64,000 nucleotides of DNA, taken from the NCBI RefSeq assembly GCF_024679095.1, contig NC_066509.1, positions 21,655,924 to 21,719,923 of the forward strand, given 5' to 3'. The notes beneath the pieces are model-generated. The model saw nothing but the letters and a program-made list of their open reading frames with translations, was not told where the DNA came from and made no database searches. Shown piece after piece: positions 7,633 through 52,275 of this stretch. Both the position numbers and the translations under genes were made by a program. The stretch is from Eriocheir sinensis (taxonomy: Eukaryota > Arthropoda > Malacostraca > Decapoda > Varunidae). The number at the start of each line of letters is the position of its first letter. The stretch's first letter is position 1.

Positions 7633-13209
<5,577 letters not shown>

Positions 13210-15146: not shown

Positions 15147-17990
15147 CTAACCCCACCTAATATCGCTGTCCATGAATTTATCTAGTCTATTTTTGAATGT
15201 GACAATCGTATTGGCAATCACCACATGACTGCTAAGCCTATTCCACTCATCCACCACCCTGTTAGTAAACCAATTTTTGCCTATGTCCCTGTTGAATCTG
15301 AATTTATCCAGTTTAAACCCGTTACTTCGTGTCCTACCCGGTTCTCTTACCAACAAAACCTTATGAATGTCTCCCTTATTAAAGCCCTTCATCCATTTAT
15401 AAACCTCGATCATGTCTCCACGCACCCTTCGCCTTTCTAGAGAATGCAAGTTTGACTGTTTGAGTCTTCCCTCGTATGGCAAGTTTCTCAACCCCTGAAT
15501 CATCTTAGTCATTCTCCTCTGCACCGATTCTAACATTTTGATATCCATTCTATAGTAAGGTGACCAGAACTGAACCGCATAGTCAAGATGAGGTCTAACT
15601 AATGCTAAATATAGTTTGAGGAAGACTTCGGCGCTTCTGTTGCTTACGCTCCTTGAAATAAATCCCAGTACCCTATTAGCTCGATTTCTAGCTTGAATGC
15701 ATTGTGCCCTTGGACGGAGATCAGAGCTCACTAAGACCCCTAAATCCCTCTCGCACCCAGACCTACTTATGAGAGTGTCATTTAAGCAATAGTTATGTGA
15801 GGGGTTGTTCCTACCTACACTCAGAATACTGCACTTCCCTACATTGAACTCCATCTGCCATTTATCCGCCCAGTCATATAATCTGTTGAGTTCACCTTGG
15901 AGAATACTAGCGTCCTGATCCGACTCAATTACTCTACCGATCTTGGTATCATCTGCAAACTTACTGACATCACTACTAATTCCTGTATCTAAGTCATTGA
16001 TATAAATAATAAACAAAAGTGGACCTAATACCGAACCTTGCGGGACCCCACTCGTAACACATCCCCAGTCAGATCGTTTACCATTGATTTGCACTCTTTG
16101 CTTCCTATTGCTAAGCCACGCCTTGACCCAGTTCAAAACTTTACCCTCTACTCCGTGAGCCTGTAATTTAAGCAACAGTCGTTGGTGAGGAACTTTGGCA
16201 AACGCTTTACTAAAATCAAGATGGATTACATCATAATTTTCATCTCTGTCAACCGCCTCAAATACTTTATTGTAGAAGGACAAGAGATTGGTGAGGCATG
16301 ACCTACCTTTTGTGAACCCATGCTGCGGGTCGTGAATTAAGCTGTGTTTCTCTAAATGCTCCCGAATGTTCCTGGCTATTATGGACTCCAGCATCTTCCC
16401 TATAACCGATGTTAAGCTAATTGGGCGATAGTTTGAAGCAACTGACCTGTCCCCCTTTTTAAAAATCGGCGTCACATTAGCTACTTTCCATAGGCTCGGC
16501 ACATAGCCAGTATTTACCGACATCTTAAAGATGTCGGTTAGTGGGTCACTGATTACATCACCTAACTCTTTTAATACCCTCGGAAATATCCCGTCAGGAC
16601 CTGGCGACTTGTTCTTCTTAAGCTTATCTATCTCATCCTGAACTACTTGCCTGGTAATGATTATATCCCTCAATTTATCGCCATCCCCGCCCTCGTACAC
16701 CTGAACTCTTTCCGGTATAGTCGTTCGATCCTCCTGTGTGAATACTGAAAGGAAGTAGTCGTTCAACAATGTGCTCATATTTTCGTAATTTTCTACTAGC
16801 TCCCCTGTGTTTGTTTTCAGCGGTCCAATTTTCTCCCGTGTTTTTCTATACATCTGAAAGAAGCCCTTAGGATTACTTTTCGCCTCATTTGCTACTTTGA
16901 TCTCATAGTTCTTTTTTGCTATCCTGGTGTTTTTCTTAACTAATCTAGATAGTTCGACGTACCGGCCCTTGAGATGTGTTTCCCCATTCTTTATTTTCTG
17001 ATAAATTCCCTTCTTTAACCCAATCTCGTGTTTTAGTCCACGAGTCATCCACTTAGGATCATTGTTTTCTTTTCTAAGTGTTCGCTGTGGTATATGCTGT
17101 TCTTGCCACTCTACTATTACTCTAACTAAATTATTGTAAGACATTTCTACCTGGTTCTCCTGGCTCTCCAATCCGCAGTTCTGGCCCTCATGAATCCCTA
17201 AATTATCCCAGTTTACCCCTTCAAGATGTCTTCGAAGCCCCTCGTAGTTTGCTCTTCTAAAATCTGGCACTAACACTGGGTTTGGTTCGCGGGTTACCGC
17301 CCAGTCTAAGCTAAAACGAACCGTTCTGTGATCACTATTTCCTAACTCTCCGCCCACCTCCAACTCACGTAGCAAGTTCCCATTATTGGTTAGGACTAAG
17401 TCTAATATGTTATCTCCTCTGGTAGGCTCAGTAACTACCTGCTTAAGGAAATTATCTTGTATAACTTCAAGAAAGTCCTCGGCTTCCAGGTCACCCACTA
17501 GGTCTTCCCAGTCTATATTCCTATAATTAAAGTCCCACAGTACGCAGACATTTCTACTCCTACTCGCCCTGCCAATCTCCTGTAGTAATATACTCGTGTC
17601 CTGCCTGTTAAGGTTGGGTGGCCTGTATATAACTCCTAGAGTTAGTTTTTCTTTCCCTTTGTAAACGTCCACCCAAACTGATTCTGAATCCATGTTAGTT
17701 TTGACTGAGTTGTTAACTAAACATTTAAGTGAGTCTTTAACATATAGCGCAACTCCACCTCCCTTTCTGCCCCTTCTGTCTTTGTGAAACATCTGATAAC
17801 CCGTTATTTCAAATTCTGATCTAAAATTTCTATTAGCAGTGTCTATCCATGTCTCAGTGATCGCTATTATGTCAAAATTTTCTGAACAAGCTTCACCCCT
17901 TAGTAAGTCTATCTTGTTTCTGAGGCTCCTGCTGTTAGTATAGAAGATTCTTAGCCCGTCCTCTGTTACTCCCCTAGAATTACTGAGTCG
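15147..17990 (-). CDS. LINE K ORF2: endonuclease-reverse transcriptase, open
   Basis: The frame is open for 948 codons from a TGA at 17993-17991 to the stop at 15147; the first ATG (17792) lies inside the endonuclease, so the native start lies further upstream, near where the SINE inserted. Endonuclease: TNSRSLRNKIDLL, ITETWID, RKGGGVALYVK, a block reading WDFNYRNIDW where GDFN is usual, and NSDHRTV. RT: SPGPDGIFPRVLKEL, NYRPISLTSVIGK, HLDFSKAFAKVPH (usually AFDKV), SGVPQGSVLGPLLFIIYIND and KFADDTKI. The C-terminus has RRMTKMIQGLRNLPYEGRL. The Gly-to-Trp and Asp-to-Ala changes hint that this copy, though open, may be impaired. It performs target nicking and target-primed reverse transcription in the family. 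Confidence 0.93.
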   Translation of the reverse strand, partial: RLSNSRGVTEDGLRIFYTNSRSLRNKIDLLRGEACSENFDIIAITETWIDTANRNFRSEFEITGYQMFHKDRRGRKGGGVALYVKDSLKCLVNNSVKTNMDSESVWVDVYKGKEKLTLGVIYRPPNLNRQDTSILLQEIGRASRSRNVCVLWDFNYRNIDWEDLVGDLEAEDFLEVIQDNFLKQVVTEPTRGDNILDLVLTNNGNLLRELEVGGELGNSDHRTVRFSLDWAVTREPNPVLVPDFRRANYEGLRRHLEGVNWDNLGIHEGQNCGLESQENQVEMSYNNLVRVIVEWQEQHIPQRTLRKENNDPKWMTRGLKHEIGLKKGIYQKIKNGETHLKGRYVELSRLVKKNTRIAKKNYEIKVANEAKSNPKGFFQMYRKTREKIGPLKTNTGELVENYENMSTLLNDYFLSVFTQEDRTTIPERVQVYEGGDGDKLRDIIITRQVVQDEIDKLKKNKSPGPDGIFPRVLKELGDVISDPLTDIFKMSVNTGYVPSLWKVANVTPIFKKGDRSVASNYRPISLTSVIGKMLESIIARNIREHLEKHSLIHDPQHGFTKGRSCLTNLLSFYNKVFEAVDRDENYDVIHLDFSKAFAKVPHQRLLLKLQAHGVEGKVLNWVKAWLSNRKQRVQINGKRSDWGCVTSGVPQGSVLGPLLFIIYINDLDTGISSDVSKFADDTKIGRVIESDQDASILQGELNRLYDWADKWQMEFNVGKCSILSVGRNNPSHNYCLNDTLISRSGCERDLGVLVSSDLRPRAQCIQARNRANRVLGFISRSVSNRSAEVFLKLYLALVRPHLDYAVQFWSPYYRMDIKMLESVQRRMTKMIQGLRNLPYEGRLKQSNLHSLERRRVRGDMIEVYKWMKGFNKGDIHKVLLVREPGRTRSNGFKLDKFRFNRDIGKNWFTNRVVDEWNRLSSHVVIANTIVTFKNRLDKFMDSDIRWG

Positions 17991-18411: not shown

Positions 18412-19902
18412 CTATACTAAAAAATCCCTCAGGGTACCAAGTGCTCGCTCAAGGGAGTCTGAGAAAGCCTCAACACCCTTGAACGTCAAGTGTATCCCGT
18501 CACGGGCGTAGAGGGCGTCGTTGCCAAGGAAGAGGTCCCAGTTGTCGACGAACAGCCACCCATTGCGCCCGCAGTGCTCAGCAAGTCTACTGTTCACTGC
18601 TATCGCCCTGGACAGCCATCCATCGCCAACGCCCCTCCTTGGCAGGACGCCACACACTACTGGCGACCCACCAGCGTCACGTATCCTGCCTAACAATTCT
18701 CTAAAACGCCTGAGAAGGTCCTCGCTTGGCACACGAGAAACGTCGTTTCCGCCACAGCTGAGAAAGACAATGGGGTTCGATCCCTCGCTTGCCATACACG
18801 CCTCAATCCTGTCTGATATATGGCCCACCCCTGCCCCTGGGAAACACACCCTCGTCCTGTTCTTATCCTTGGAGCAAAAATACCTGTCAACATAACGAAC
18901 CTGACTATCACCAACAACAAGAACCCGACGGTCGGAAGGGGGCCAGGAGGGTGGGTGAAGGGGAGGGAGAGCAGGAAGGGAGGGAGGGACCTGCTGTGAA
19001 GAACGAGGAGAAATTGTGGAAGAGGTGGAAGGTGGACAGGAGGAGGAGGAGGAGGAAGAGGAAGAAGGAGAAAGGTAGGGTGAGGGGGTGGAGGGAGGAA
19101 CGGACGAGGAGAGGGAGGAGGAAGAGGGGGAAAGGGAAGGTAAGGGACAGGTGTTAGAGGGAGGGACGAGCGATCAGGCGGAGGACAAGGACGAGAAAGA
19201 GGGAGGAGGAGGAGGAGGAGAGTGGGCAGGAAGAGGGAGAGGGGGACGGAAGAGGAAGGCGAGGTGGAGGAGGAGGAGGGGGAGGGAGGAGGAGGAGGAG
19301 GAGGAGGAGGAGGAGGAAGGAGGAGTAGGTGAAAGGGAGAGTGAGGTGGGGGAGGGAGGTACGGACGAGGAGAGGGAGGAGGAAGAGGGGGAAGGGGAAG
19401 GTGAAGGACAGGTGTGGGAGGGAGGGACGAGCGAACAGGCGGAGGACAAGGACGAGAAAGAGGGAGAGGAGGAGGAGGAGGAGGGTGGGCGGGGAGAGGG
19501 GAGAGGGGGGACGGAAGAGGAAGGCGAGGAGGAGGAGGAGGAGGAGGAGGAAGAGGAGGAAGAAGAGGAGAAGAAGGGGTGGGAAGCGGGGAGATCGGAG
19601 ATGGTCGAGGAGGAGGAGGAGGAGGATGGGAGGGGCTGCTGTGTGGGTGAACACAATACTGGAGGGGAGGAGGACGAGGAAGAAGAGGAAGAGGAAGGGG
19701 AGGAGGAGGAGGCGGGGCTTGTTGCTGCTACACTAACCAGTAAGTGTACCTGGGCGGCGAGAGTCGTAACCCTATTCTCTAACTCTATGATCCTCTGATC
19801 ATCCTTCTGAGTCTTAACGCAGAACCTACAAACGTCCTTGGAAAGAAAGTACTGCTTGGCCATACGAAGGCCACACCCAGAACAACGCTTGAGGGACGTC
19901 AT
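18412..19902 (-). pseudogene. LINE K ORF1: zinc motif, coiled coil, Ser/Pro-rich region, SGNH esterase
   Basis: From ATG at 19902 to TAG at 18412 the frame has a single stop, TGA at 19176-19174. The N-terminus reads CSGC, then CRFC, a four-cysteine zinc motif, followed by a coiled-coil stretch (IIELENRVTTLAAQVHLLV). About residues 60-330 are Ser/Pro-rich low complexity, including a 261-bp in-frame tandem duplication. The C-terminus is an SGNH hydrolase: VVGDSQV (catalytic Ser), SCGGNDVS (Gly-Asn) and ARDGIHL (Asp-His). The stop is a TGT-to-TGA change, because the second duplicate unit keeps Cys at the matching codon. Otherwise about 496 residues. Architecture matches LINE A ORF1. Confidence 0.87.
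19025..19720. repeat. Purine-rich low-complexity region with 261-bp tandem duplication
   Basis: G/A-rich plus strand made mainly of GGA and GAG. A block containing cggacgagga starts at 19101 and again at 19362, a period of 261 bp or 87 codons. Units are about 19060-19320 and 19321-19581. On the minus strand this encodes the Ser/Pro-rich part of LINE K ORF1. Confidence 0.85.
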
Positions 19903-20580
19903 GGTGAAGATATGGGCGAGGCAAGACGGAAACAATTAGGCGCGTTAAGACGTTAACAAAGTACGCAGCTGCGGTGAGGTCGTCAGGTCAAAAATGTGTA
20001 TCTAGGAAAACAAACCAACAGCTGCTGTGAGGTCGCAGTCAGGTCAATTCCCCGGGGAAAAGGGTGTGTCTCGGGTAAAAAGGCGCGGTTATTTCTATCC
20101 ACCAAGACACAACATAGGCCAATATTAATATACTGAGAAATCACTTATGTAAAGAAGATAATAACTGTGTTCACTAGGTTTGCGCGGAAAGTGGATTATC
20201 TAGTGTTTTGTGTGGACTTAGAAATTAACGTAGCTTGGCGCGCCTGATTCACGTAGTCCTATTATCACAGCACAGTAAAGTATCCTAATAATAGAAGGAG
20301 AAGAAAACACAAAAGCAATATAAAAAACACAAAAGCAATATAAAACCGTGTAACACTGGGTTGGCGTGAAAGAATGTTGAATTTAGTGTAGATGTGGGAA
20401 GCTTAATACACTTGTCCTAGGAGTAACTGTGGATCACTATCTAACTAAGTAAACACTAAATCAGAACACTTAGCGGTCTGTAGTAGAGGGCAGGGTAATC
20501 CTCCTGGTTTTGAATTCCTCCAGTACAGCAGCAGTTCACAGAAGCACAGAACGCCTCACACCGCGAAAGCAGAGGAAAAC

Positions 20581-20582
<2 letters not shown>
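19903..20582 (-). other. Upstream leader of LINE K, unassigned limit
   Basis: No coding motif. It contains a short tandem repeat aaacacaaaagcaatata near 20306-20343. It presumably includes the LINE K 5' UTR, where an internal Pol II promoter would lie in this type of element, but I see no diagnostic promoter motif. Confidence 0.45.
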
Positions 20583-20644
<62 letters not shown>

Positions 20645-20664
20645 CAGTTGTGGTGGTAGTAGTA

Positions 20665-20725
<61 letters not shown>

Positions 20726-20780
20726 TAGTAGTGGTGGTGGTAGTAGTAGCGGTGGTAGTAGTAGCGGTGGTAGTAGTAGT
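20583..20780. repeat. (GTA)n microsatellite
   Basis: GTA tract with GTG interruptions, directly abutting the truncated 5' end of LINE H copy 2. Confidence 0.95.
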
Positions 20781-21285
20781 TGTAGTGGAACAGAGCATAT
20801 GAAGAAAGAATACAGAATGTGGACCAGGGCTCCTTCACCCCGGTAGTATTCACGACGGCAGGAGGGATGGGACCAAGGGCGCAGAGCTTCTACGCAAGAC
20901 TCGCCGAAACACTGGCGGATAAGAAACAACAGCCAAGAAGCAGTGTGGTCGCCTGGATGAGATGCAGGCTGTCCTTCTCCCTCCTGAGGTCAGCCTTGGT
21001 CTGCCTGAGAGGAACCAGGTCACCTGCACCCAAAACCACCCGCATTGCTGACCTGGACTTTGAGGCGACGGTGGTTGATAGTCGTATCAACCACAAGCTC
21101 TGTTAGCTTAAAAATAAAATGTTTAGTAAAGTTTGTAATATTAAATAAAGATGGTTGCCGGCCACAGTCATTGGCGGGGTGGGGCCAATGAATTGCTCTG
21201 TGAAAGGATATGAGAGAATATACCGCTCACAACGCAACTCTAATAGATGGAAACCCGTAGTAGCAAAAAAAAAAGAAAAAAAAAG
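20781..21285 (+). mobile_element. LINE H copy 2: 5'-truncated, in (GTA)n
   Basis: Begins at the (GTA)n edge inside the coding C-terminus (VDQGSFTPVVFTTAGGMGPR) and stays open through a tail not intact in copy 1 (WMRCRLSFSLLRSALVCLRG) to TAG at 21104. The 3' UTR matches 13421-13573 and ends in an A-rich run followed by (GTA)n at 21286-21334. It therefore repeats the pattern of family H ends joined to (GTA)n. Confidence 0.82.
20790..21106 (+). pseudogene. LINE H copy 2 C-terminal coding remnant
   Basis: About 105 open codons of the family H C-terminus, lacking the zinc and nuclease motifs because of 5' truncation. Reads through FYARLAETLADKK and the Arg-rich helix to a TAG stop. Confidence 0.75.
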
Positions 21286-25075: not shown

Positions 25076-25133
25076 CCACTACTACTACTCCTGGTATTGC
25101 TGCTACAATTACTACTACTGCTGCTGCTGCTAT

Positions 25134-25174
<41 letters not shown>

Positions 25175-25175
25175 T
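25076..25175. repeat. (ACT)n microsatellite
   Basis: Trinucleotide ACT tract with GCT interruptions. Confidence 0.92.
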
Positions 25176-25766
25176 ACTACTTCTCATTACTGTCTTATTC
25201 TCCTCATTCTTCTCTCTCTTCCACTACTTCATATTATTCTCTCTCTTTCTCATATTGTTTCTCCTCTCTTTTTTTTCTTTGCCTCATCTCATTAATTCTT
25301 ATTTCATCTGGTCTTGTTCTTCATGTCTGCCTGTTATTTTTCCGGTTATTTTTATTTCTACTTTTTTTTAACCCTAGGCACAACCCTTCACCCTGCACAT
25401 AACACTTTCTTCCCCATCGCCTCGTGATTGGCCTGCTCTTAGCTACTCAAGGGTCGTGAGGGCGAGAGTCATGCGTTGAGTGGTGCTGGTTTTCAACTCT
25501 CCTGGTGATGGGTTGGTCTGTATGTGACTGTCTTGCCGCCGATCACCGGGATTATGGAGGGAACGAAAGTGAGGGGAAGAGGAGGAGGAGGAGGAGTAGG
25601 AGGATTGAAGACAAAAAAGATTGGGATTGCTGGAGTTGGAAAAAGGAAGGAGCAGGAGGAGGAGAAGGGAGAAAAAATTTGATACTATCGGAGGAGGAAA
25701 AGGTAACGAACAAGGAGGAGGCGGAAGAGAAAGGAAAAGAAAAAGTAGCAGGGGTCAGTTAGGGAA
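25176..25766. other. Spacer left of the nested transposon stack
   Basis: Pyrimidine-rich then purine-rich sequence. No gene or element recognised up to the piggyBac-like terminal repeat at 25767. Confidence 0.5.
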
Positions 25767-25975
25767 CCCATTTATGCCTGGCGTCCTATATATAGTCCAC
25801 CCTTCTATTGAATCATAGAAAATTGGGATATTATAGAAAACGGAATTTGGTGATCTCACATTCCTTACTGAAGTATGGGCTCTAGAACAGGCAGCACCCC
25901 TTGAAATCTGGTGTCAGGATCTCTGTTGCACAGCATCTTAAAGTTAAGGATTTTTGACATTTCGTTTTTTCGTCA

Positions 25976-26555
25976 TGGCATCCACAAGTAGGTGAGTGTT
26001 GTCTCTACGTACTTTTGTGTAATATTATTTACTTGATGTTAAGTAACAGCTAAAGAGTGTATCTTACTTCCATTACATTTTGAAAGTTGTAACTTAAAAA
26101 GAACATGTAAAACAGCAGGTCCAAATTATAGTGTACTACATGTAGGTCTCTAAGAACATATGGTATGTAAGATGATATATATTCCTTTGTAATCTACGTC
26201 TCATATATTTGCTGTAATTGTTAACCAGTGATTAATTAGGCTATAATATAGCCTATTATTTGGCATAACAATACATTTTATATTACATCAGATTTTCAGT
26301 GGATTCAAATCGAGCTGATTCTACAAGTCTACCAACCCAGTCAGGCTAACTGACCTCTTAAGTATAGCTGACTCAAGTAATTCAGGAGAAGAGATTGTTA
26401 TCCCCATTTTACCCCCTGATAATGCTGCTGGTTCAATTACTGATGAGGATTCTGGTGACGAGGATGGAGGAGGAACTATGAACAACTTGCCCGGAAGTAG
26501 GATTCGAGCACCTGCTGCTTTGGATGATGAAAACCCTAGTGAGGATGAAGAATAT
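25976..26555 (+). pseudogene. piggyBac-like transposase, N-terminal part
   Basis: A candidate first exon begins ATGGCATCCACAAG at 25976, followed by GTGAGT and an AT-rich intron to an acceptor CAG near 26300. The second exon has a frame break and then reads EEIVIPILPPDNAAGSITDE, DSGDEDGG, NNLPGSRIRAP and the acidic ENPSEDEEY. LPP, DEDSGDED and NNLPGS are characteristic of the acidic N-terminus of piggyBac-derived transposases. The frame is cut by the Gypsy insertion after Tyr; rejoined across it, a few basic codons follow and then the frame is lost. No DDD catalytic domain is present. Confidence 0.78.
26551..26555. other. Target site duplication AATAT of the Gypsy element (left)
   Basis: AATAT directly precedes the LTR start TGTGGGG; the same five bases follow the other LTR at 39256-39260. 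Confidence 0.9.
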
Positions 26556-27100
26556 TGTGGGGTTCTTGAAAGATCTGGACTACCGAAAATCCCGTAAATT
26601 CTCAGCAATGAAAAAATATAAGATAAAATATCTGAAAATTGAGTGTTTCAGAGTCACAGCCCCTCCTAGTCACTTATTATATTTAATTCTGACCAGTCAC
26701 ATCTCTCATAGGACAAGCAAAGACAGATGAACCAGTTCTTAAGTTTATTTAAGCAACAAAGAAACTCGCTGGAAATTAAGAATAATTAATTAATACCAAG
26801 CACACAGCAACCTAGCTGTCTATCTTAAAACATTCTAGCAAAATAGATTACTTAGCTGTAGGTGGGAGAAAGCCAAGCCACACCTTGTCTTCCTCGTGGT
26901 CTGGAACCCTGGAGTCCTTCTTCAATCCTCTCTGCAACACGCCGTGCCCTCCTTACCTCCCACGTCTATCCTCACCTGAGTATACAGTCACTCTGGACTT
27001 GTGGATACTACAAGGCTGGAAAGACCACCACGATGAGCAACGTGGAGCGGGAGGACGTGAGGGACGTCTGCTCGTGATGAAGTCTGGGTGGGAGAAGATG

Positions 27101-27469
27101 TAGGCGGTGGGCTACATAGGCCCATCGTGCACCCCCCCCACAGCATAACGAAAGTGCATTTTTCTGAAGCTTTGGGATGTCCCCAATACCAAATGGAACT
27201 TTAACAGGAAAAATCTAGGGATGCAATAGGGGTAACTCTCATATGTTTTGAAGGTACCGTAAAAATACCACATCGGTGAGCGTAAAACAGTTCTTATTCA
27301 AAGCTGCCTCCTGAACTTACTTTTTTACACAATTAAGCATGTGACGTGTCATTTTAAAGGATTTTCATCAGTCTTCACTTTAGTATATAACAAAATACAA
27401 TATCTTAATTATATTTACGAATAATGTCACTAACACACATACCACCACAGTTTCCTTCGCAAAATCATA
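27101..27469 (+). repeat. Left terminal inverted repeat of the Academ-like element
   Basis: Reverse complement of 33036-33404 with only a handful of differences, for example cctcctgaactta here against cctcctgacctta. Includes a C-run (8 C) near 27130. Confidence 0.95.
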
Positions 27470-27809
27470 GCAAAATATATATGATAATGTTGGATAACAT
27501 TTCCTTCCATTCAGTGGGCAATATGAAAGTTATAAACTTCTTAAACTCATACATCTCTTCCAGTGACTCTCTTGAACAATAAATGTTATATCACAGATCT
27601 CAAAATTATGAAAATAATATGGTTCCTCACAGACATGCACAAGCCAACATAAATGTGTAGCTGTAGGTTATAATAAATGCGGTCCCACTATAGTATTTAA
27701 GGCAGAGCTAAATACAGTATATCAAACATAAATGTACTACATCTGCTAAAAAATGTTTTTCTTATATTATTAATAGTTTCTAGAATAGTTGACTACTTTT
27801 AATTCATTG
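27470..27809. other. AT-rich noncoding DNA inside the Academ-like element
   Basis: Lies between the left inverted repeat and the gene's stop codon; probably 3' UTR. No other feature seen. Confidence 0.6.
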
Positions 27810-30800
27810 TCACTCATCATCACTTTCTGATTCTATTATATTATTCCTGTGCTCACTTATGTAACCTATGTCAAAGTCACTATCTTCAGATTCACTTGCA
27901 TCTTCTTTTTCATTGATATTTCTCTTTGTAGTAACATCTACTAGCTCCTGGGGAAGCATTTTATTGTTGTACCACATTGGTTCCAGTCTGTTATCCACAC
28001 GTATCCATCCATGATCTTCAGGGTCTGGTATTTGTGGGTGCTGTATGTGGGACCGTTTCCAGATACCAACCTGATAATTCACGCGCTTGATGTGTTGCAA
28101 TAGAGATTCACGACACGGAGGAAGTGCACTCATGTCGATATTTGTTGTGGGAACAATACCATATGAGCAGAGATCAATGATCTTGGCATGGCGAACTGAA
28201 TCCACACTGGTAAGGCGATTCTTCCCATACATAGCACATGTGAATGCATCCAGCTCTTTGACCACATCTCTAGACACCATCCAAGTATCTCCCAACTTGG
28301 AGAGAGGGCCAGAGAAATTCAGTGCTTTATGCATAACTTTGATTGGCTTGACTTTTCCAATCCTTAAAACAACTGGTCGAATCGCATCCTGAATATGCAT
28401 GCAGTGCCAACAGTGCTGTACAATGCTCTGAACCTAATTCTGCAGCAAGTTCTCCAATGTTTATCAGTCTTTGCTTATTGCCTGTCCCTGTTTCGAACAA
28501 AATTTTGATGCCCTTCAACTGAGATGCATAGTGCAACAAAATGAAGAATATGTCTGTGTCAGGGCTCTTCACTCGGCAATTATGATATCCTTTGGTCTTT
28601 GCATAGTTACAATAGAGTATTACACGTGTATCTGTTTCTTCTTGTGAGGAGTGGAGTATGTCTATTGTTTTCCTTTCAGTGGTGATTCCATCTACTGATG
28701 TCAAGAGATAAGCAGAACCTTCAGATATGATTGTGACCTCTCGACCTTTTAATTTTGGCGCATATTCATCCTTGGTCCATTCTTTGACAAGAAGATCAAT
28801 GAGTTGTTTTTTTATTGTCATCGTTGGCAAGAAACATTTTCCAGTCTGGCGGCTTTCTGGTGCTAGCACCCTTTACAATGAGCTTCTCAGTAGTTCCCCT
28901 ACGCTGCCTCTCCATTGTCTTGATGGAACTTGGGTGGTAGGAATCAGTGCTGAAAATTACATCGCCTTTTCCCATCATATTGAATATCTTCCCTGATATG
29001 AGCCTGAAGTTGGTAGGAATTTCTTTCATACAGTAGAAGACAGCATTTCCATCATGGATTACCAGGGTGTCTTTGATTGGTGGGGGTTCATCGTTGGGAA
29101 CATCCTTCGCTACATGATGGAAAGCCTTTGATTTGTCAGTTTTGGCAAAGAAACCATCTGCAGTTGCCAAACTATATGGCACAGGAGTCAAGGGATATTT
29201 CATCAACATTGGTAGGTCCAATTTGATATTTTGTTCCTGGCATTTCACGAATAACTGGAATACAAAGTTGGATTGTTGTTTGTATTGAACCACCTTGTTT
29301 TGGCTGTTGGTAACTTTGGCTGTTTTTTCATAGCTTCAAGTGTCTTTAGTTTCAGTCGCTGGACAGGTTGAAAGAAATCTATTCCTTGTTGAAGGCGGCT
29401 GGAGATAAATTCTGCCTTGGCTTCAGCACCAACTGATTCTGCCTTCAGCACATCTCTAGTTATGTCTGTTGATGCAGTAGCACCAGAGGACAGAATTACT
29501 AGATCGTTGGTCTCCATGTTGAAAGGGTTCAGGAAGCTCTGGATCGAGAGTTTTACTTTCTCTACGGCCTTCTCACTCCTCTCTTGATTCCAGCAAGCTT
29601 GATGTCTCGGTGTTGGTTTTCTGCACTACCACAAACCATTCCAGCAACCTGCAAAGTGGCATTGACATACTGGGATCGTGCATGTGTTGACCGGACCCAT
29701 CTTTGATATGTACTGAAGTTGGTGAGAAGGCCAGACACACCTACAGCACCACCACCTCGAGACTTGGCATGTCTCATGAAAGTCTCCTCCATAGTTTTGT
29801 CGACATCACACCGATTTCCAGGTATCATGGAGCGGCTACACTGAATGCTCCTAGTCTCAGAAGATCCACAGCACCTGGATGTGAAGCATCCAAGTTGGCA
29901 AGGAACACGCCAAAGTAAGTGAGATATCTTGCATAGTTCTGTCCACCAAAACTGAAGAACAGGTCTGCCATTTTGTACATGGACTGTGCATAGAGGTAGA
30001 AGTTATTATCCTTCACGGATTCTTGCAGAGATAATACAAGCCAAATGTGATCCATATAGGATATCCACAACTGTGCAGTTTTGCCTATCACTCCTTCCAA
30101 TACATTCTGACGAAATTCCATGTATCCATCTATATATTTCTTCAGCCCTTCATCTCTGAGAGCTTTGCTGTGAGAGTGCAAGGATGATACACAAGATCGT
30201 TGAGTATTCTGTGAGAATCTTCTGGTAGAGAGTTACATTCCGTTGGAGATATTTCTTGATATTTCTCAAGCAATAGCTGTTCAAGACCTTCAAGTACGGC
30301 CTTGTGGCAGAACATGGCCCTGTCATAGTTTTTGCCTTTAAGAACCCCATCTAATGATCCGGAGACAATCAAACCTGCTTCGAATAGAACATCAGACAGA
30401 CCTGAACCTGCCATCTTTTTCTCCACCATCTTCAGGTAAGCACACGTAACATGGAATGTACCAATCATCACAATGTGTCTCTCGTACTCTGTCGGGTTAT
30501 TCCAAACTAATGGGTAAGCCTTCATGCATACCCCTAGATCAAATGTTGTCACTACGTACTTTTGTCCAACCTCATCTGTTGCCTGTTCTGCACATTTCAA
30601 GCACTCTTTGACAGTCTTGTATTCTGTTATGGGTTTCGGAATCACTGGATAGTAGTCAATGACTGTTATCTGTTGAGGTTTCTTTCCTGTCTGAGACAGG
30701 AAACCCGACCAGGCAGGAACTATATGTCCACTTTTGTACACAGTTCTGGCAATGACCCAAAGCATTTGTCTTCGGGTAGAGTTCATTAGTGCAGTAGCCC

Positions 30801-32952
30801 CTTCTGGATAATGCAGCTGGTTTATGTGCAGCCGTGGATCTTTTCTCATTGTCACATAGCAGTCCGGTAATTCAGGTTCCTTGAGTTCCAGGGACCTACG
30901 ACCAGTCTTTGGGACACACGGTAATTCCCTGTGAGTCCCTTCTGCACCAGATACTTCCTGTAGCATTATGCCATGTGCTGTGTGAACTGAACCACCGCCA
31001 GTCATATCGTTGATTAACATGTCAAAATTATCAAACTCTGAATGGAACAGGGACAGTGGACCAGGATTCCGGACAATCTGGTTAGTCAGCAACGTAGAGG
31101 AATCTTCAACACACTGTGCTATAGCAGTTTCCAGCTCCAGTGAGAAGGCATAATTCTCTGAGTGACCAAACCTGCCGAAATACAAAGTAAAACAAATGTA
31201 TGAATTTGGTAGAATGGAACTAGTTTAAGAGAATAAATTGTCAGTTACTATAGGTCATTCAAAGTACACAGGGTTGCTGAGTAAATAGTACGTTGAATTT
31301 CTACACTATCTCCTTGGGCAATATATAAGCAACAATACCAATGTTAAAATGTCAAATTCTACATAGTATTGATGCGAACCTGTTCAGCATGGTGACGAGA
31401 CGCTCACTTCTGAACATATGTCGCAGAGTCAAACACATCAAAACATGCTTAGGGAGCTTCCATTCACTGTTGGTGGCTGCTCTACAGATATCCTGAGCAA
31501 TGGATGACACTAATCGCTTGGATTTTTCAGTTCTTGGGGACGATGCACCATATAGCATGTTAGACAATAATTTTTCTAAAGATGAAGGCAAACCAATGTC
31601 TGAGTTGATTAGAGATTGGGCAGTTGGTGGCCACATCAACTCTGCAGAATTCTTGAAAGCGTTCAGGATGTCCTGCAAAATATTTCCATCGTATGTGAAA
31701 TCTACATGTTTTTGTTTTCAAAATACTGTGATTCTACCTGTTATTTTAAGTATTTAGTCACTCATTTTCTCAAACCTCAAAATTTAAAACATTCAGTATA
31801 TGTGATATTTATAATATGTATTTTTCTATTCAAATTATTGTTGATGTAATACATATTTGCAGCATTACATGTTTAATATATGTAATAATCATACATCTTA
31901 GATAATCAATATAACACGGAAAAATTTTTTTTTTTTTTTGTCAATATACCTGATGTAGACGAGCTCCAGCTGTTTCAATCACGTCTTTGCTGCCCAGTTC
32001 ATATGCATATTTCATGACTTGGTTGATTTGAACATTGCTGTTGTACAGGATATATGAATGAAATTGTCCCAAGGGGCAGAATGATAAGTGACTTCCATAA
32101 TGCTTCTCCAGTTTTGTTTTCAAGTTTTCACTACGGAAGTTAGGATTTTTATGATCTGAGTTCTCCAGAGTATGTCTATGTGTCACATAAATTTTTTAAC
32201 ATCAAAATGTTCCGTTGCTTCAGCACCACATCATCAACAATTTTACAAACACTCGCAAATGCATTAGCATGAGCTTCAACCATCGATTCTTGCTTCTCTT
32301 TCTTTTCTTTGTCAGGATTTCTCCATTTTATGGGATCTTGGCAATACTTGGCATGGCATGACCTGTGATATTTGGCTCCGCAAGCATACATGTCAACTCC
32401 TCTTATTCTGGTTAGTAGCTTTTGGTCGTTTCTCTTCTCTGCTAAATCCTTTATAAACTTGCCGCCGTCCCGATCGAAGACTGACATCCCTTCGGTGGTC
32501 CAGGTTCCTCCACTCTTAATCTTTCTGCGACCTTCATTGTTACAGAAGATACAATCTGGTTTGAATTGAGTGCTGTCTCTTGAAGATTTCTTGCGACTAG
32601 ACCTGGAAGTTGAAGACACTTCAGTGTCAACTACTTGAATGTCCAGACGATGTAGATTGGCGCAGAATCTCTGATAACAGATTTGATGGTATCCATGTTT
32701 ATCATTTAATATATCAGGAATTAGTTCACATGTTGACTCCATACGATATGGGGAATCTATAGGCTGTGCAAGGCGTCTCCTTTTGATATCCTGTAGTCTT
32801 AGCAATCTAGATTGAGGATCTGATACAGTGGAGAATGGCTTTATCGCTCCATATTTTTGTCCCTCCATATGAAGCACACAGACAATCTCAGCATCATCAG
32901 CATTTGATATATTCCTCTTGGAGTGAGGGTGTTCATTCTTCAGTGCCATCAT
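27810..32952 (-). pseudogene. Academ-like transposase/XPG nuclease gene, two introns, several frameshifts
   Basis: Candidate start ATG at 32952, although an acceptor-like CAG just upstream leaves room for an earlier exon. N-terminus: two Cys/His units (CELIPD...HQICYQRFC and CIFC...YACGAKYHRSCHAKYC). Intron 1 is 31949-31673 and intron 2 is 31379-31172; both are GT-AG and restore the frame (HQ/DILNAF and MLNRF/GHSENY). A candidate DDE triad is EFDNFD, VTTFDLG and LFEAGLI. The middle contains KYPLTPVPYSLATADG. The C-terminus has KSPDTDIFFILLHYA and YSGCDSTSCF, recalling the acidic and GCD motifs of XPG/FEN1 nucleases, then GKVKPIKV, LPPCRESLLQHIKRVNYQ and an acidic tail. Frame breaks lie near 32185, 30180, 29830, 29570, 29285, 28810 and 28375, some in homopolymers, so decay and sequencing error are both possible. 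Confidence 0.8.
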
Positions 32953-33035
32953 GTAACTAGCTCTCTCTATCAAACTGAAAATATAGTAAAAAGTTTACAA
33001 GAATTGTGTATGTAAAATATTATTCAATATTTTTT

Positions 33036-33404
33036 TATGATTGTGCTAAGGAAACTGTGGTGGTACGTGTGTTAGTGATATTATTCGTAAATATAATTAA
33101 GATATTGTATTTTGTTATATACTAAAGTGAAGACTGATGAAAATCCTTTAAAATGACACGTCACATGCTTAATTGTGTAAAAAAGTAAGGTCAGGAGGCA
33201 GCTTTGAATAAGAACTGTTTTACGCTCACCGATGTGGTATTTTTACGGTACCTTCAAAACATATGAGAGTTACCCCTATTGCATCCCTAGATTTTTCCTG
33301 TTAAAGTTCCATTTGGTATTGGGGACATCCCAAAGCTTCAGAAAAATGCACTTTCGTTATGCTGTGGGGGGGGTGCACGATGGGCCTATGTAGCCCACCG
33401 CCTA
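33036..33404 (-). repeat. Right terminal inverted repeat of the Academ-like element
   Basis: Mirror of 27101-27469, including the G-run (8 G) near 33366. Confidence 0.95.
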
Positions 33405-33684
33405 ATGGAAGATGGCGGCGGGGCCGACAATGCTCCGCTCCCCGGCCGGGGTTAAGATGCCAGATCTCGCCATACTGACATCTCGTTTTCTGTGTAACAC
33501 TTACACTAAACGCCCTACGGCTATGGATGTATTATTTATTAATAACCTAACACATGCACTAGGTAAATAGTGGGTCATGCATCCCACATATAGCTCAGCT
33601 TTGGCAGTAATAACCAAATGATTTGAATAAGGTCCTGTTTCCCGCCTGCCTGGTTTTACTTCCTGAATAATGAAATCATGACTT

Positions 33685-33701
33685 TTCGTTCCCCCTTTAA
33701 G
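33685..33701 (-). promoter_or_regulatory. Polypurine tract of the Gypsy element
   Basis: On the minus strand AAAGGGGGAACGAAAAG lies directly before the 3' LTR, the expected site and composition for the plus-strand DNA primer. Confidence 0.75.
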
Positions 33702-34314
33702 AAAACTTTTGTCTTCAGAGAAAAGTTTTTTGACTGTGATAAGCTGCCAACACTGGTAACAAGCCCTACACCTGCACCTACAGAGTAGCATGTTCCTGAC
33801 AGTACTTTCTCACACTTTTTCACACAATCTCTCATACTGTGGTGTATGTCAGTTAACCTCTGCTCAGGTAATTGACGGTTCGCCTGTGAGTGAAAAACCT
33901 CAACATTTACGTTACTACTCAAACTAGAGGGAACACTCCATAGCGAGACGCCAGTATCTTTTAGAGCGGACTTGGCGAACTTTGCCACATTTATTCATAA
34001 AATGTAAATGGTGTTATGTAAGTATACATAGTGTAGGTGGGACAGATGTGAAATAGCTGTAGGTAGGTGTAAATATGGTGTAACTTATTGTATACATTCC
34101 TGGCTATATGCCTAATTGTTCCTACATTATCATACCATGCACCATATCATGCAACTTAAATTTTAAGCATGCCGCAAAACTCTCCGCCAACCATCCTCGA
34201 ACCCACCTAATCTGAACACTTTCGTCACTTGGTTCCTCGACTCAGCTGAATCTTAAGGTCCCAAGATCCGTATATAAATTCTCCGAGCCACCTAACCTGT
34301 CAACTTTGATCATC
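33702..34314 (-). other. Gypsy 3' untranslated region
   Basis: About 600 bp between the RNase H stop and the polypurine tract. Short open frames exist but no env-like protein, signal peptide or membrane segment was recognised. Confidence 0.6.
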
Positions 34315-37300
34315 TTAATCTGCTACCAGACGCGACAAGAAGTCAGCCCCAACGTTGACTTGTCCTTTTATGTAGTTTACAGTGAAATGAAACTGCTGGA
34401 GATACAACGCCCCGCGCATCAGACGTGCATTTGCGTTCTTAGAAGTTTTCAAACTGGCTAGAGGCATATGATCAGTTTCGAGAACGAATTGGTCGCCATA
34501 TAGGTAAACGTAATATTTCTTGATTCCCTCTACTACTGCAATGAGCTCCTTTTCTACCGCAGATTAGTTTCTCTCAGCTGGACGCAACTTCCTGCTGTAA
34601 TAACTTACAGGAAACACCTGATTATTACTCTCTTGCATCAACACGGCACCAATGCCCTCCTGTGATGCATCGGTACGCAGAATGAACTGCTTATTGAAAT
34701 CAGGCAACTGCAAAATGGGCTCTTTGCATAACATGCTCTTAAGTGTCGCGAAGGCCTCTTGAGCGCCTGTCCATAGTACCTTATTGGGTGCATGTTTTCT
34801 CAACAATTCATGCAGAGGGGCAGCAATGACAGCGCAATTGGGGATATAATCCCGGGAATATCCAGCTAAGCCCAAGAATGACTTTACCTGAGTTTTGGTC
34901 TGAGGACGTGGAGCATTTCTAACTTTTTCTTTTTTATCCATCTGGCACCCATACTGTCCTTCACCAATGACATGTCCTAAGAATGGCACCTCTTCGTGCC
35001 CAATCAAGCACTTACTGGGCTTAATGGTCAGGTTGTAGCGCTCAAGCCGCTCCAACACCAACCTGAGGGTCTCTAGATGCTGCCTGAATGTGGGTGAGTG
35101 AATTAATACGTCATCCATGAAAAGCTCCACTCCTTCCATACCTCTCATGACCTCGGGCATGACTTTGTTAAAAGCTGCTGGTGAGTTGGTCATCCCGAAG
35201 GATAAGGCTTTGTACTGACACAGGCCCCCAGGTGTACTAAAAGCTGTCACCTTACAACTTTTCTTACTCAGAGGAATCTGGAAAAATCTTTTCGTCAGGT
35301 CTATCTTAGAAAAAATTCTAGATTCAGCCTAAGTAGCAAATATGGCTTGCGGATCAGACATTGGTTCAGTGTCTACGCGCGTCACTGCGTTTACTTTTCG
35401 ATAATCTACGCAAATCCTAATTCCTCCTTCTTTCTTCCTTATGACTATCATGGGCATGCAGTAGGGGGAATTTGATCTCTATGATACCCGCGGCCTCCAT
35501 TTCATTGATTTTGCTTTTTACGGCGTCTATCAGTCTTTGTCTTTGTCTTTGTCAACTCAATTCAATGCTCTGGTACCCGAGCAATCTTGGGTTTGCCCGA
35601 AAAAAAACTCTGCATAACCCTCTAGCAACGATGCTAATTGTTCCCTCTCCTCTGGGGCTAACTTTTCTCCCAACGTCACGTCATGCACTGACTCTGTCTG
35701 TCTAGAAGATACAGTGAGAGGAGTCTCGCCGTCCCCATCATCCTGTATTACTACTGCCGTTCCTACATCTACGGTCTGAGGTTGAGAATAGTGAGCTTTA
35801 ACTAACTCTAGACACCTCACCTTCTCTTCATCATTCTCACTTTCTCGCAAGCAACCTGCGGCTGCATCTGGCCGGTAGTATTGTTTCAACATGTTGATAT
35901 GGAGCCGTTTTGGGTGTCCATCAACCAGGAGAATATAATTAAGGTCATTAACCTTCTCCTGAACCTCGTAAGGTCCCTTCCACTGAGCTAACAGCTTGTT
36001 GCTCGCTGTGGGAAGCAAAACTAGGCACTGTTCTCCTACACTGAGCTTACGCAACTTTGCCTTCCTGTCGTAGTAACTTTTCAGTACTTGTTTTGCTTTG
36101 AGTAACTCATCCTTAGCAATGTTACAGGTCTCTCTTAGCCTGTCACCTAAATCTAAGACGTACTGGTATGTGGTCTTGACCTCCGGGTCCGGTATATTGT
36201 CATCCCACAGCTCTCTCAGTAACTGAAGCGGACCTCTAACCGACCTACCATACATTAGCTCAAACGGGGAGAACCTGGTGGAGCTCTGTGGCGCTTCTCT
36301 GTACGCGAACAACAAAGGAGCCAGGTACCTAGGCCATTCCTTGGGTTGTTCGGCAGCCATGCGTTTAAGCATTTTCTTAAGTGTGCCGTTAAAACGTTCA
36401 CACAGTCCATTCCCCATGGGATGGTAGGGCGTGGTATGTAACCCTTTGCACGCTAGCAGACGTAATACTTCTTCCATCATCCCTGAGGTGAACTGAGTAC
36501 CCCGATCACTCAGTATTTGTCTGGGTATACCTACTCGGCAAAATATAGTCATGAGAGCTTCAGCCACAGTTTGCGTCTCTATATTCTTTAGCGGTACTGC
36601 TTCTGCCCAACGCGTGGCAAAATCTACAAGGGTAAGCATATACCGAGAGCCATCGCTGGCTCGGGGCTCGATCGGCCCAACCAAATATACCGCTACTCTT
36701 TCAAAGGGAGAGTCAATAATGGGCAGTGGCTGTAAGGGAACTAGCTTTACCCTACCCCTATCTATAGTCTTTTGACAAACATCGCACGACCTCACGAATC
36801 TAGCTACCTCCTGGCCTATCCCTGGCCAATAAAAATATGCTTGTACGCGAGCGAGTGTCTTGGTTCTCCCCATGTGACCGCCTAGAGTAGTACTGTGACC
36901 TAACTTGAGAACAGCCATGATGCGGTTGTCGTTCAGCTGAATGACACTGTTTTCCTGCAAACGTTTGCGTAAGCCGTGCAGGGTGTCGTCTCTCTCCACC
37001 TCCTTCCTTACGTCCTCGCTGTTAGTTAGATCTCCAAGAGGGCTAACAGTACTCTTACGCTTAGCAGCTGCTCGGGTCACTACTGCTGCACCAAACTGAG
37101 GCTCACCTTCTCCTTGTACCCTTTCACTTTCTCCAAAATCCTCTGGATCCAACACCGCGTTAGGTGTTTGAGTGACGGCATTTTTACTCACCCCGTTAGT
37201 AGCTCCGGGAATGTTGCCAATCACTAAATCACAGAGCGGTGTTTCGAGTGTCACCGCCATGATCCAGCCTGTGTAATAGGGTGACTTGACTTTTATCTTC

Positions 37301-37506
37301 ACTTCAGGAGTTATCACTGGCGCGCTATTCAACAGACATATTTTTCTACGTTTGCCTGTGAATTCATGGCTCCAAGCTAAGCTGTGCTTCAGTGTACAAA
37401 TGGTAGAACCACTATCCCTCATCACCGTAACCTCTCGGTCTCCTACCCAACCTTTACTCAAATTCAACCAATCATCGTACTGATTTGTTGCAGTTCCGGC
37501 CACTAG
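34315..37506 (-). pseudogene. Gypsy pol: protease, integrase, reverse transcriptase, RNase H
   Basis: The frame follows the gag stop directly. Protease: MRDSGSTICTL. Integrase: zinc domain HSTTLGGHMGR...CDVCQ, then a core whose first catalytic position reads VAVYLVGPI (Tyr for Asp), with LSDRGTQFTSG and NGLCERFNGTLKK retaining the second Asp and Glu, and a C-terminal LLAQWKGPYEVQEKV. This frame is open from 37506 to 35557. RT follows: ICVDYRKVNAV, KIDLTKRFFQIPL, FGMTNSPAAFNKVM and FMDDVLIHS (active site). RNase H: RTDASQEGIGAVL, then TAA at about 34564 where Tyr is usual, AVEKELIAVVEG and ETDHMPL, ending at 34315. Further breaks lie at about 35330-35560. Inactive. Confidence 0.92.
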
Positions 37507-38649: not shown

Positions 38650-39255
38650 TGTGTGGTTCTTGAAAGGTCTGGACTTCCGAAAATCCCGTAAATTCAAAGC
38701 AATAAAAAAATATAAAATAAAATATCTGAAAATTGAGTTTTTCAGACTCACAACCCCTCCTAGTCACTTATTATATTTAATTCTGACCAGTCACATCTCT
38801 CATAGGACAAGCAAAGACAGATGAACCAGCTCTTAAGTTTATTTAAGCAACAAAGAAACTCGCTGGAAATTAAGAATAACTAATTAATACCAAGCACACA
38901 GCAACCTAGCTATCTATCTTAAAACATCCTAGCAAATAGATTACTTAGCTGTAGGTGGGAGAAAGTCAAGCCACACCTTGTCTCGCCTACTGACATCTCG
39001 TTTTCTGAGTAACACTTACACTAAACGCCCTACGGCTATGGATTTATTATTTATTAATAACCTAACACATGCACTAGGTAAATAGTGGGTCATGAATCCC
39101 ACACATAGCTCAGCTTTGGCAATAACAACGAAATTATTTGAATAAGGTCCTGTTTCCCGCCTGCCTGGTTTTACTTCCCGCTCTCTCAATCAAAATGGCG
39201 GGGACTCCCGCTGTATTTTTCCACGGACCACTCCCTGAATAATGAAATCATGACA
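38650..39255 (-). repeat. 5' LTR of the Gypsy element
   Basis: 606 bp, TGTGTGG on the plus-strand left and TGACA on the right. Matches both flanks of the split 3' LTR but carries an internal deletion of about 260 bp relative to it, and has about 48 bp near 39180-39230 absent from the other LTR. Confidence 0.9.
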
Positions 39256-39640
39256 AATATGAACCAAAGAAAAATAAAAGAAAAGCTTGTGACATATTGT
39301 ATTGATGTAGCAATAAATAATCCTTGGCAACTGCACAAATTATGTGAGGGTAAGGATGCCATGGACTTCCTTTCTTTTAGGCGCAGCATTGCACGCTTCT
39401 ACCTGGAGCGCTATGCAAATCCTCCAGGCCCTGACAAACGGGGAAAACCTAGGGCTAGAGCAGATGAGGCTAGATATGACATGCATGCACACTGGGTTGT
39501 TCCACAAAGTTGTCAGACACGTTGTGCTCACTACCATATGAAGACAACATCCACATGTGAGTGGATTTGCCTAGTGACCTACATATAGGATGCCCTATAT
39601 TTTCACAATGAAGATATTTTTTGGGCAACAAAGGAACATC
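39256..39640 (+). pseudogene. piggyBac-like transposase, C-terminal part
   Basis: Begins at the AATAT duplication. Reads KLVTYCIDVAINNPWQLHKL, LSFRRSIARFYLERY, then a Cys/His-rich end (QTRCAHYHMKTTSTCEW, FHNED), which matches the pattern of the zinc-binding C-terminus of piggyBac transposases, with stops and lost Cys residues. An old remnant. Confidence 0.75.
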
Positions 39641-39723
39641 TATGCAATAAGTGAGTCTAATTAACCTTACAGGGAATAATTTACATCAATATCTTGACAA
39701 TGCTGAGCTTAGGCATAAATGGG

Positions 39724-41018
39724 TTAGGGAGAGAGAGGAAAACCAAAATAAAAGACGAAGTGAAGAATACATATATTAGGAAAAGTTGAAAGGGAAGAAG
39801 AATGAAAAAAACTAAAAATTGGGAAGTAGATGAGATAAAGAGGATGAAGTGGGGATGAAGTTGAGAGACGAACAGAAGAAAGAAAAGAGAATGGTGAAAC
39901 ATGAGGAAAAATTTAAGCAAATAAGACTAAGATGGGGAAGAAGCAAGGAAAAGAAAGGGAAAGAAGAAAAGGGGGAGTGGTAGTCACACGAGGGGGACAA
40001 CGAGGCGGATGGGGAGGCTGCAAGGAGAGGAGAGGAGAGGGGAAGAAGAGGGGAGAGAGAGGCATTAAGGTAAGTGGAGTTGGACGGTGCTGGGGCTGCA
40101 ATGAGAGGAAGAAGGGATGCGATGGGGATTGTCTGGGCAGTTTTGCAATAAGTGAGGGTAAGGGAGGGGAGGCGAGGAGGAAAGATGAGAGGAGGGAATT
40201 TGTAAGGGAAGGAAGCAGAGGAAGAGTAGAATATGTAGGAAAGAAGGGAGGAAAATGAGAACAGGAAGAGCAGAACAAACAGGAAAGAAGGGAGAAGGAA
40301 AGCCAGGGAGGAAAGATAAAAGGAGAGAGTTAACAGATGGAAGGAGGTAAAGTAGAACAAGTATGAAAAAAGGAGAGGCTCAGCCATACAGGAAAAATGA
40401 GAAGAGGGAGATATAAGAGAAAGAAGGAAGAAACTAGAGGATAAAGAAGGGATGTAGAGGGAAACGGAGGGTGACGAAGAAGAAGCAAAAAGGAGAAGAA
40501 AATAAGCTGGGCGGGAGAGTGACAGTGAAAGGGAAACGAAAATGACGAAGGAAAATAATGTGAGAAAAGTAAATAAAACTGAACGGATCAGGAGAGCAAA
40601 ATAAAAGACTAGCCTGATATAGAAAAAAAATTGGTACAAAAAGTGGGGCACGAGAAAAGAGAACCACGAAAAGCAACTAAGGAAGTGGACAAAATAGGAA
40701 ATGGGAAGGAAGAGAGAACGTAAGAAACAGTATCAATTAGGGGCGAAGGGAAGCAAGGAGAAACACTGATAGGAAAATCGAATAACAAAAAGAAAGATAA
40801 TAAGAGTACTGAAGAGATAAAGAGAACAAAGGGGAGGAAATAATGAAGAAAAATAAACAAACTGGGCATGATTTGAGATTAGTAGAAGGAAGAGGAGGAG
40901 GAGGAGGGGAAGAAGAAGAATGACTCGAATTAAAGGAATGGAGGAAAGAACTGAGGGAAGAAAAGGAAGCGGAAGTTGGAGAAGAGATTTGTTGAAATAT
41001 TAGTAAGAGATTTAGGAT
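39724..41018. other. Purine-rich low-complexity region
   Basis: About 1.3 kb with a strong G/A bias on the plus strand. Long minus-strand frames here encode only Phe/Ser/Leu-rich composition artefacts. No gene. Confidence 0.7.
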
Positions 41019-41372
41019 AGGCGGTCGCTGAGTGATTAGCGTGCGGGCACGGCATTCATCACGCCATGGACAACGTCGATTCGAATCCCCACGCTACCAC
41101 CTGGGATTTTTCAGTCGCCGCTGAGTGGCTTACGACTACCCACATGCTGTCCTGAAGACCACCCATCAACCCGGACTCTAGAGAAAACCGTCCAAGTGAA
41201 CCAAAAAATGAGGTCCGAGAGGCAGCATGAGCCAAAAATAACTGGTGCCACAATAAAAAGAAAAAAAAAATAGCCTGCGCCTTGACAGGCTTGGGCCGAC
41301 CACCAGGCCCCTGAAGAAAGCCTACCGGCGCTATAGGTAGAGATGTAAGAAAAATTAAAAAAATAAAAGATA
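41019..41372 (+). mobile_element. SINE S copy 2, tRNA-headed
   Basis: The head has box A-like GCTGAGTGATTAGCG and box B GATTCGAATCC (41079-41089), the internal Pol III promoter pattern of a tRNA. The body is shared with 17976-18333 (CTGGGATTTTTCAG, CCCACATGCTGTCC, CATCAACCCGGACTCTAGA, GCCTACCGGCGC) and an A-rich tail follows. It depends on a LINE for mobility. Confidence 0.9.
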
Positions 41373-41519
41373 CGAGGGAAAATTATCATGAGGGGAAAGG
41401 ACAGGTGATGGTAGTATTTGTTGCTGTAATATTAATTATCCATAGTTCCAGAAGCAATAGTAGTAGTAGTAATAATAGTAGTAGTAGTTGTGGAAATACT
41501 AAAAATGCTAAAGAGGAAG

Positions 41520-47236: not shown

Positions 47237-47491
47237 GTCTTTAAGTACCTGAACAAGCTCAGCAACGGTGATCACTCCAAACTCTTCACGCTACAAACTA
47301 CCCTGAGAACAAGAAACAACGGAAAAACAGTTCAAGCAAAGCGATGCAATACCGACATCGGCTGGAGTTATTTCTCAAATAGAGTTGTTCGCCACTGGAA
47401 CAGCCTTCCTGCAGAAGTGGTTAGCGCAGAGAGCATCAACTCCTTCAAGAAACGCATTGATCGCCACTTTGCTGCATCGGGAGTGAACTGA
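47237..47491 (+). pseudogene. LINE C C-terminal coding part, after the insertion
   Basis: Continues LINE C with VFKYLNKLSNGDHSKLFTLQ, RTRNNGKTVQAKRCNTDIGW and RHWNSLPAEVVSAESINSFK to a TGA at 47489-47491. Matches the C-terminal pattern of the other CR1-like ORFs here. Confidence 0.87.

Positions 47492-51450: not shown

Positions 51451-52275
<825 letters not shown>

What the first reader, a model, noticed from the sequence alone, without database searches (positions are those of the whole stretch)
27101..33404. Large DNA transposon with 369-bp inverted repeats, Cys/His N-terminus, candidate DDE core and XPG/FEN1-like nuclease region
The inverted repeats and minus-strand gene are plain. The C-terminal motifs (PDTDIFFILLHYA, SGCDSTSCF) recall XPG nucleases, and the N-terminus has two Cys/His units. 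This fits the poorly characterised Academ superfamily, AcademX lineage as I recall it. A nuclease joined to a transposase raises the question whether the element processes its own flaps or branched ends. Two GT-AG introns restore the frame exactly, so it was an expressed eukaryotic gene.
Basis: partly seen in the sequence, partly recalled or inferred. Interest (0 to 1): 0.85.

Follow-up and report, generated by a model that had tools for sequence, protein, structure and literature searches.

The report
Transposon fusing transposase and flap-type nuclease
This is a young cut-and-paste DNA transposon of an animal genome whose single large protein joins a transposase core to a complete-looking FEN1/EXO1-type DNA nuclease; the kind (AcademX) is already known, but why such an element carries its own flap-cutting type of enzyme is an open question that this family makes testable.

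The parts
27098..27100 (.). left copy of the 3-bp target duplication, ATG
   Evidence: 3-bp match in 9 of 10 copies, 5 of 90 mispaired
27101..27478 (+). left terminal inverted repeat, starts TAGGCGGTGGGC
   Evidence: found at 9 other loci at about 98-100% and in a second family at about 75% over 125 bp
33027..33404 (-). right terminal inverted repeat (371 of 378 identical to the left)
33405..33407 (.). right copy of the 3-bp target duplication, ATG
31950..32953 (-). exon 1 from the first ATG of its frame; N-terminal Cys/His region (one frame break in this copy)
   Evidence: one open frame of 351 codons in L009
32356..32883 (-). two Cys/His units: C-x2-H ... H-x2-C and C-x2-C ... H-x2-C
   Evidence: positions; each C and H of these four motifs conserved in 32-34 of the 33-34 rows with letters, 34 long homologues examined
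31673..31949 (-). intron 1, GT-AG, 277 bp
31380..31672 (-). exon 2
31172..31379 (-). intron 2, GT-AG, 208 bp
27810..31171 (-). exon 3 with stop codon (7 overlapping open frames, 6 frame breaks, in this copy)
   Evidence: L014 has one frame of 954 codons over most of it
29600..31168 (-). DDE transposase region (approximate limits): RNase H-like core with a long all-helical insertion; D codons 31030-31032 and 30538-30540, GTFH within 30448-30465, E codon 29787-29789
28000..29150 (-). XPG/FEN1/EXO1-like nuclease region (approximate limits); acidic codons 29051-29053, 28943-28945, 28636-28638, 28630-28632, 28558-28560, 28552-28554, 28381-28383
27025..27100 (.). left flank missing, together with the element and right flank 33405-33420, from the second haplotype (contig C1326)

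Best explanation
A recently active cut-and-paste DNA transposon of the AcademX kind. Its roughly 1,550-residue protein has an N-terminal pair of Cys/His units (inferred: binding of the ends), a DDE/RNase H-like transposase core interrupted by an all-helical insertion as in P element and hAT transposases, and a C-terminal XPG/FEN1/EXO1-like nuclease. Shown: ends, 3-bp duplication, family of near-identical copies, gene structure, predicted folds, conserved acidic sets. Inferred: the DDE part cuts the 3' strands at the TIR ends and joins them 3 bp apart in the target, while the nuclease cuts the other (5') strand or trims the 5' flaps of donor and strand-transfer intermediates, a division of labour like TnsB/TnsA in Tn7 (recalled). 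The donor break is then mended by end joining after resection. I put about 0.4 on this nuclease step taken alone.
Confidence: 0.83

Rival explanations
1. The transposase belongs to a P-element- or hAT-related lineage that took up an XPG domain on its own, outside Academ.
For: The DDE model fits P element and Hermes best, and no Academ reference sequence could be compared.
Against: Duplications are 3 bp, while P and hAT make 8 bp (recalled). Nuclease plus 3-4 bp duplications is how AcademX is described.
Confidence: 0.1
2. The XPG-like part is no longer a working nuclease and serves as a DNA-binding or structural module.
For: The domain is too diverged to be found by sequence; no activity data.
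Against: All seven putative metal ligands are kept in 46 of 46 homologues with letters there, while mean pairwise identity of the region is 49%. Acidic motifs also persist in more distant lineages of the same genome (L057, L058).
Confidence: 0.08
3. The nuclease acts after excision, as an EXO1-like 5' resection enzyme on the donor break (favouring gap repair or flank loss), rather than in cutting or joining the ends.
For: EXO1 is the best fold match. The haplotype without the element has lost flank on both sides, and L016 is a rearranged copy with two right ends that nevertheless has a clean 3-bp duplication.
Against: One deletion allele only; EXO1, FEN1 and XPG differ by about 2 in Z, which does not separate their activities.
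Confidence: 0.3
4. The haplotype C1326 never held the element and carries an unrelated 92-bp deletion.
For: Deletions occur; a more distant repeat (L060) shows the site uninterrupted, so element-free sites exist.
Against: The deletion spans the insertion point. In the 3.4 kb aligned around the site it is the only gap over 4 bp, so random placement would cover that point in about 92/3424 = 2.7% of cases. Gap sizes in the two further 2.5-kb stretches (20 and 2 gap openings) were not listed.
Confidence: 0.25

Closest known systems
AcademX lineage of the Academ superfamily (Repbase; Kojima 2023 passages)
   Same: Nuclease-bearing DDE transposon, 3-bp duplications, inverted repeats; length 6,304 bp, near the mean of 5,565 bp given for curated bivalve Academ elements (PMC10294476, passages)
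   Different: Not compared by sequence; whether the 378-bp repeats and the exon structure are usual for AcademX could not be checked
AcademH lineage
   Same: Same superfamily if the call is right
   Different: Helicase in place of nuclease and 9-10 bp duplications; here no helicase family was found and duplications are 3 bp
P element and hAT (Hermes) transposases
   Same: RNase H-like core with a helical insertion before the last acidic residue (insertion position for P and hAT recalled)
   Different: 8-bp duplications (recalled), no XPG domain (recalled)
FEN1/EXO1/XPG/GEN1 nucleases
   Same: Fold, and the order and close spacing of seven acidic residues (FEN1 residue numbers recalled)
   Different: 8-17% identity in the structural alignments listed, joined to a transposase, not found by sequence
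KolobokE, KolobokD, KolobokP (PMC9587614, passages)
   Same: DDE transposons with an accessory nuclease
   Different: Lambda-exonuclease-like, DnaQ-like or His-Me nucleases rather than XPG

Membership tests
AcademX | 3 or 4 bp target duplications | tested here: met
   9 of 10 own end pairs match at 3 bp, 0 of 10 at 4 bp, mispaired 5 of 90; empty sites. Three second-family copies with eroded ends (L021, L022, L023; L021 and L023 share a flank) show none
AcademX | XPG-type nuclease in the transposase protein | tested here: met
   (fold of homologue P0002, acidic set); that the AcademX nuclease is XPG-type is recalled, the passage read says nuclease
AcademX | DDE transposase with RNase H-like fold | tested here: met
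AcademX | Terminal inverted repeats | tested here: met
AcademX | Sequence clustering with reference Academ transposases | not testable with these tools
   No Repbase or Dfam here; Kojima 2020 not held
AcademH | 9 or 10 bp duplications | tested here: not met
   0 of 10 own end pairs match at 4 to 10 bp
AcademH | Helicase domain | tested here: not met
   no helicase family in 10 window pieces, 3 L014 pieces and 5 homologues
hAT or P superfamily | 8-bp duplications (recalled) | tested here: not met
hAT or P superfamily | RNase H-like core with large insertion before the last acidic residue | tested here: met
   (moderate, see above)
Kolobok | TTAA duplications (recalled) | tested here: not met
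   duplications ATG, ATA, ATT, TTT, AAT, TTA, ATA, CAA, ATC
XPG/FEN1 nuclease family | PIN-like fold with the FEN1-type set of acidic residues | tested here: met
XPG/FEN1 nuclease family | Structure-specific cleavage | not testable with these tools
   needs purified protein

The most novel reading that the evidence does not exclude
The element is self-sufficient in flap processing: its fused FEN1/EXO1-type nuclease makes the second-strand cut or removes the 5' flaps that other cut-and-paste transposons leave to hairpin chemistry or to host enzymes. Its action on the donor break produces flank-losing excision alleles such as the one on the second haplotype.
Probability: 0.3. Interest if true: 0.75.

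Novelty: new member of a known kind. Interest (0 to 1): 0.5.

Why it matters
How Academ elements use their accessory enzyme is, as far as my searches show, untested: the titles listed include no study of the Academ nuclease's role (lists 14 and 115 were capped at 20 of 695 and 10 of 151, and most subscription journals are not held). Kojima 2023 suggests only that duplication length seems related to the accessory enzyme. This family offers nine sister loci about 99% identical, exact ends, empty sites, a proposed list of ten catalytic residues, and an occupied/empty haplotype pair, so the question whether a transposase brings its own flap or second-strand nuclease becomes directly testable. If true, it adds a further solution to the second-strand problem besides hairpins and TnsA (both recalled).

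Tried and rejected
Sequence-only detection of the domains: no PDB match for L014 or for the profile of 60 homologues (E up to 10); no Pfam family above cut-off. Weak DUF6589 matches in 2 of 5 homologues (P0006 E 0.0018, P0004 E 0.022, both under the cut-off); no paper in the library names DUF6589, and a genome search for the family did not complete, so it was dropped as a link. Plasmid records: no match for the 360-residue piece.

A frame of 4,485 codons reported at C9:5986521 looked like a giant fusion; it is a run of N (L058). The other very long frames were not checked and may be the same.

dN/dS between this family and its relatives L022 and L057: synonymous sites are saturated (NG86 gave no dS in 5 of 6 region comparisons, YN00 failed in 6 of 6). 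Only the excess of third-position differences (0.59-0.64 per codon against 0.22-0.43 at positions 1 and 2) speaks for protein-level constraint in the DDE, linker and XPG parts alike.

TSD exceptions: L015 has a damaged end and no 3-bp match; L021, L022 and L023 (second family, eroded ends) have none; L017, L024, L025 and L026 were not scored as end pairs; L019 and L020 share the insertion site of L018 and were left out; L010 and L017 share a right flank.

I considered that the frame breaks are assembly errors: each copy has its own small indels, but L010 and L017 share one break, so errors and real decay cannot be told apart here.

Flank searches for L011, L013, L016 and the window's right flank, and a collinearity search of the window, did not complete, so only the window and L009 sites have empty-site evidence.

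Full report
WHAT IS THERE. The stretch 27101-33404 (6,304 bp) is bounded by inverted repeats of 378 bp with 7 mismatches, beginning TAGGCGGTGGGC, and flanked on both sides by ATG. The minus strand carries one gene: exon 1 (31950-32953), a 277-bp GT-AG intron, exon 2 (31380-31672), a 208-bp GT-AG intron and exon 3 (27810-31171); both junctions are in frame. It omits that this copy is broken: exon 1 lies in two and exon 3 in seven overlapping open frames.

COPIES AND TARGET SITES. The window lies in an assembly of 1.77 Gb. The 369-bp repeat has 35 matches, which resolve into nine further loci of this family at about 99% identity over the element and a second family alike at about 75% over the outer 125 bp. 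Two of the nine (L010, L017) share a right flank and are probably one site. Of the nine family members with both ends (window included), eight have an exact 3-bp duplication: ATG, ATA, ATT, TTT, AAT, TTA, ATA, CAA. With one second-family site the count is 9 of 10 at 3 bp and 0 of 10 at 4 bp, against 5 of 90 when ends of different copies are paired. The middle base is A or T in all nine duplications. Three second-family copies with eroded ends show no duplication. The L009 insertion sits in a high-copy repeat; its joined flanks less one ATA align without a gap over 300 of 300 columns to three of three element-free repeats compared, at 98.7-99.3%. This fixes the ends and the duplication length.

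None of the ten same-family copies read has an unbroken gene; the longest frame is 954 codons of exon 3 in L014. The breaks are largely small indels private to a copy, so assembly error and decay cannot be told apart. The second family has an open frame of 1,167 codons reaching the C-terminus (L022). A search with the 360-residue piece gave 123 matches in the assembly (a copy can give several; a lower bound), many at 22-60% identity, so several lineages coexist there.

THE PROTEIN. A search with residues 180-520 of the L014 frame found 138 relatives among 5,231 candidates; 120 were listed. Named hosts among them are Solemya, Haliotis (two species), Patella, Littorina, Pinctada, Palaemon, Coilia and Myxine; one is filed under a bacterial symbiont MAG, probably host DNA (inference). 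I aligned 60 of the 120 listed, chosen mainly for length. AlphaFold2 of P0002 (1,126 aa, the exon-3 part) gave mean pLDDT 81.7 and pTM 0.83.

A SECOND HAPLOTYPE. Contig C1326 is collinear with the window at four sampled stretches: 18510-21030 at 96.9%, 25102-27024 at 98.3%, 33421-34915 at 99.6%, 38927-41427 at 99.6%. It lacks the element and also 76 bp of left flank (27025-27100) and about 16 bp of right flank, with about two bases at the junction. A more distant repeat, L060, runs through the site with a one-base gap at the junction (93% over 808 columns), so the loss is derived. In the 3.4 kb aligned around the site no other gap exceeds 4 bp; by random placement a 92-bp loss would cover the insertion point in about 2.7% of cases. 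The stretch 18510-21030 has 20 gap openings whose sizes I did not list. Imprecise excision is my preferred reading, from a single case. A recent segmental duplicate instead of an allele is not excluded.

HOW IT PROBABLY WORKS. Shown: ends, duplication, copies, predicted folds, residues. Inferred: Cys/His units bind the TIRs; the DDE part cuts and joins 3' ends across 3 bp; the XPG part cuts the 5' strand or trims 5' flaps; the donor break is resected and joined. L016, with two right ends (arms 910 bp, 99.5%) and a clean CAA duplication, indicates that two right ends suffice for transposition (inference).

WHAT IT IS CALLED. Kojima 2023 (passages read): AcademX makes 3 or 4 bp duplications and AcademH 9 or 10, and the difference seems related to nuclease versus helicase. 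The element meets what could be tested. Sequence clustering with Academ references was not testable, and Kojima 2020 was not held. It is a new member of a known kind. The host is probably a malacostracan crustacean: among relatives of a LINE in the window, the closest rows named after animals are Oratosquilla and Cherax (a cyanobacterial MAG, probably contaminated, ranks above them), and this is inference.

Noticed in passing
L061 (C1326), against window 27025-27100 and 33405-33420: Element-free haplotype that has lost flank on both sides of the insertion point, as an imprecise excision would leave
   Followed up: yes
L016 (C6:26931434-26935431): Deletion derivative with two right ends (910-bp arms, 99.5%) and a clean 3-bp duplication: a rearranged copy that apparently still transposed
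   Followed up: partly
L018-L026: A second, related family with about 400-bp inverted repeats at 93-98% where both arms were held and an open frame of 1,167 codons in L022
   Followed up: partly
G000: 123 matches of the transposase piece in one genome (lower bound), many at 22-60% identity; acidic motifs persist in L057 and L058
   Followed up: partly
homologues: Relatives in gastropods (Haliotis, Patella, Littorina), whereas a mollusc survey found Academ almost only in bivalves (PMC10294476, passages)
   Followed up: no
window 34564-37506, minus strand: LTR-retroelement-like pieces (reverse transcriptase, RNase H, integrase) next to the element; I take them for Gypsy-like (recalled)
   Followed up: no
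window 15147-17990, 11137-12744, 44713-47271, 55073-56953: Several frames with reverse transcriptase, probably non-LTR retrotransposons
   Followed up: no
window 4001-5146: Frame with a GDSL lipase-like match
   Followed up: no
window 51613-52524: Long GA/CT simple repeat
   Followed up: no
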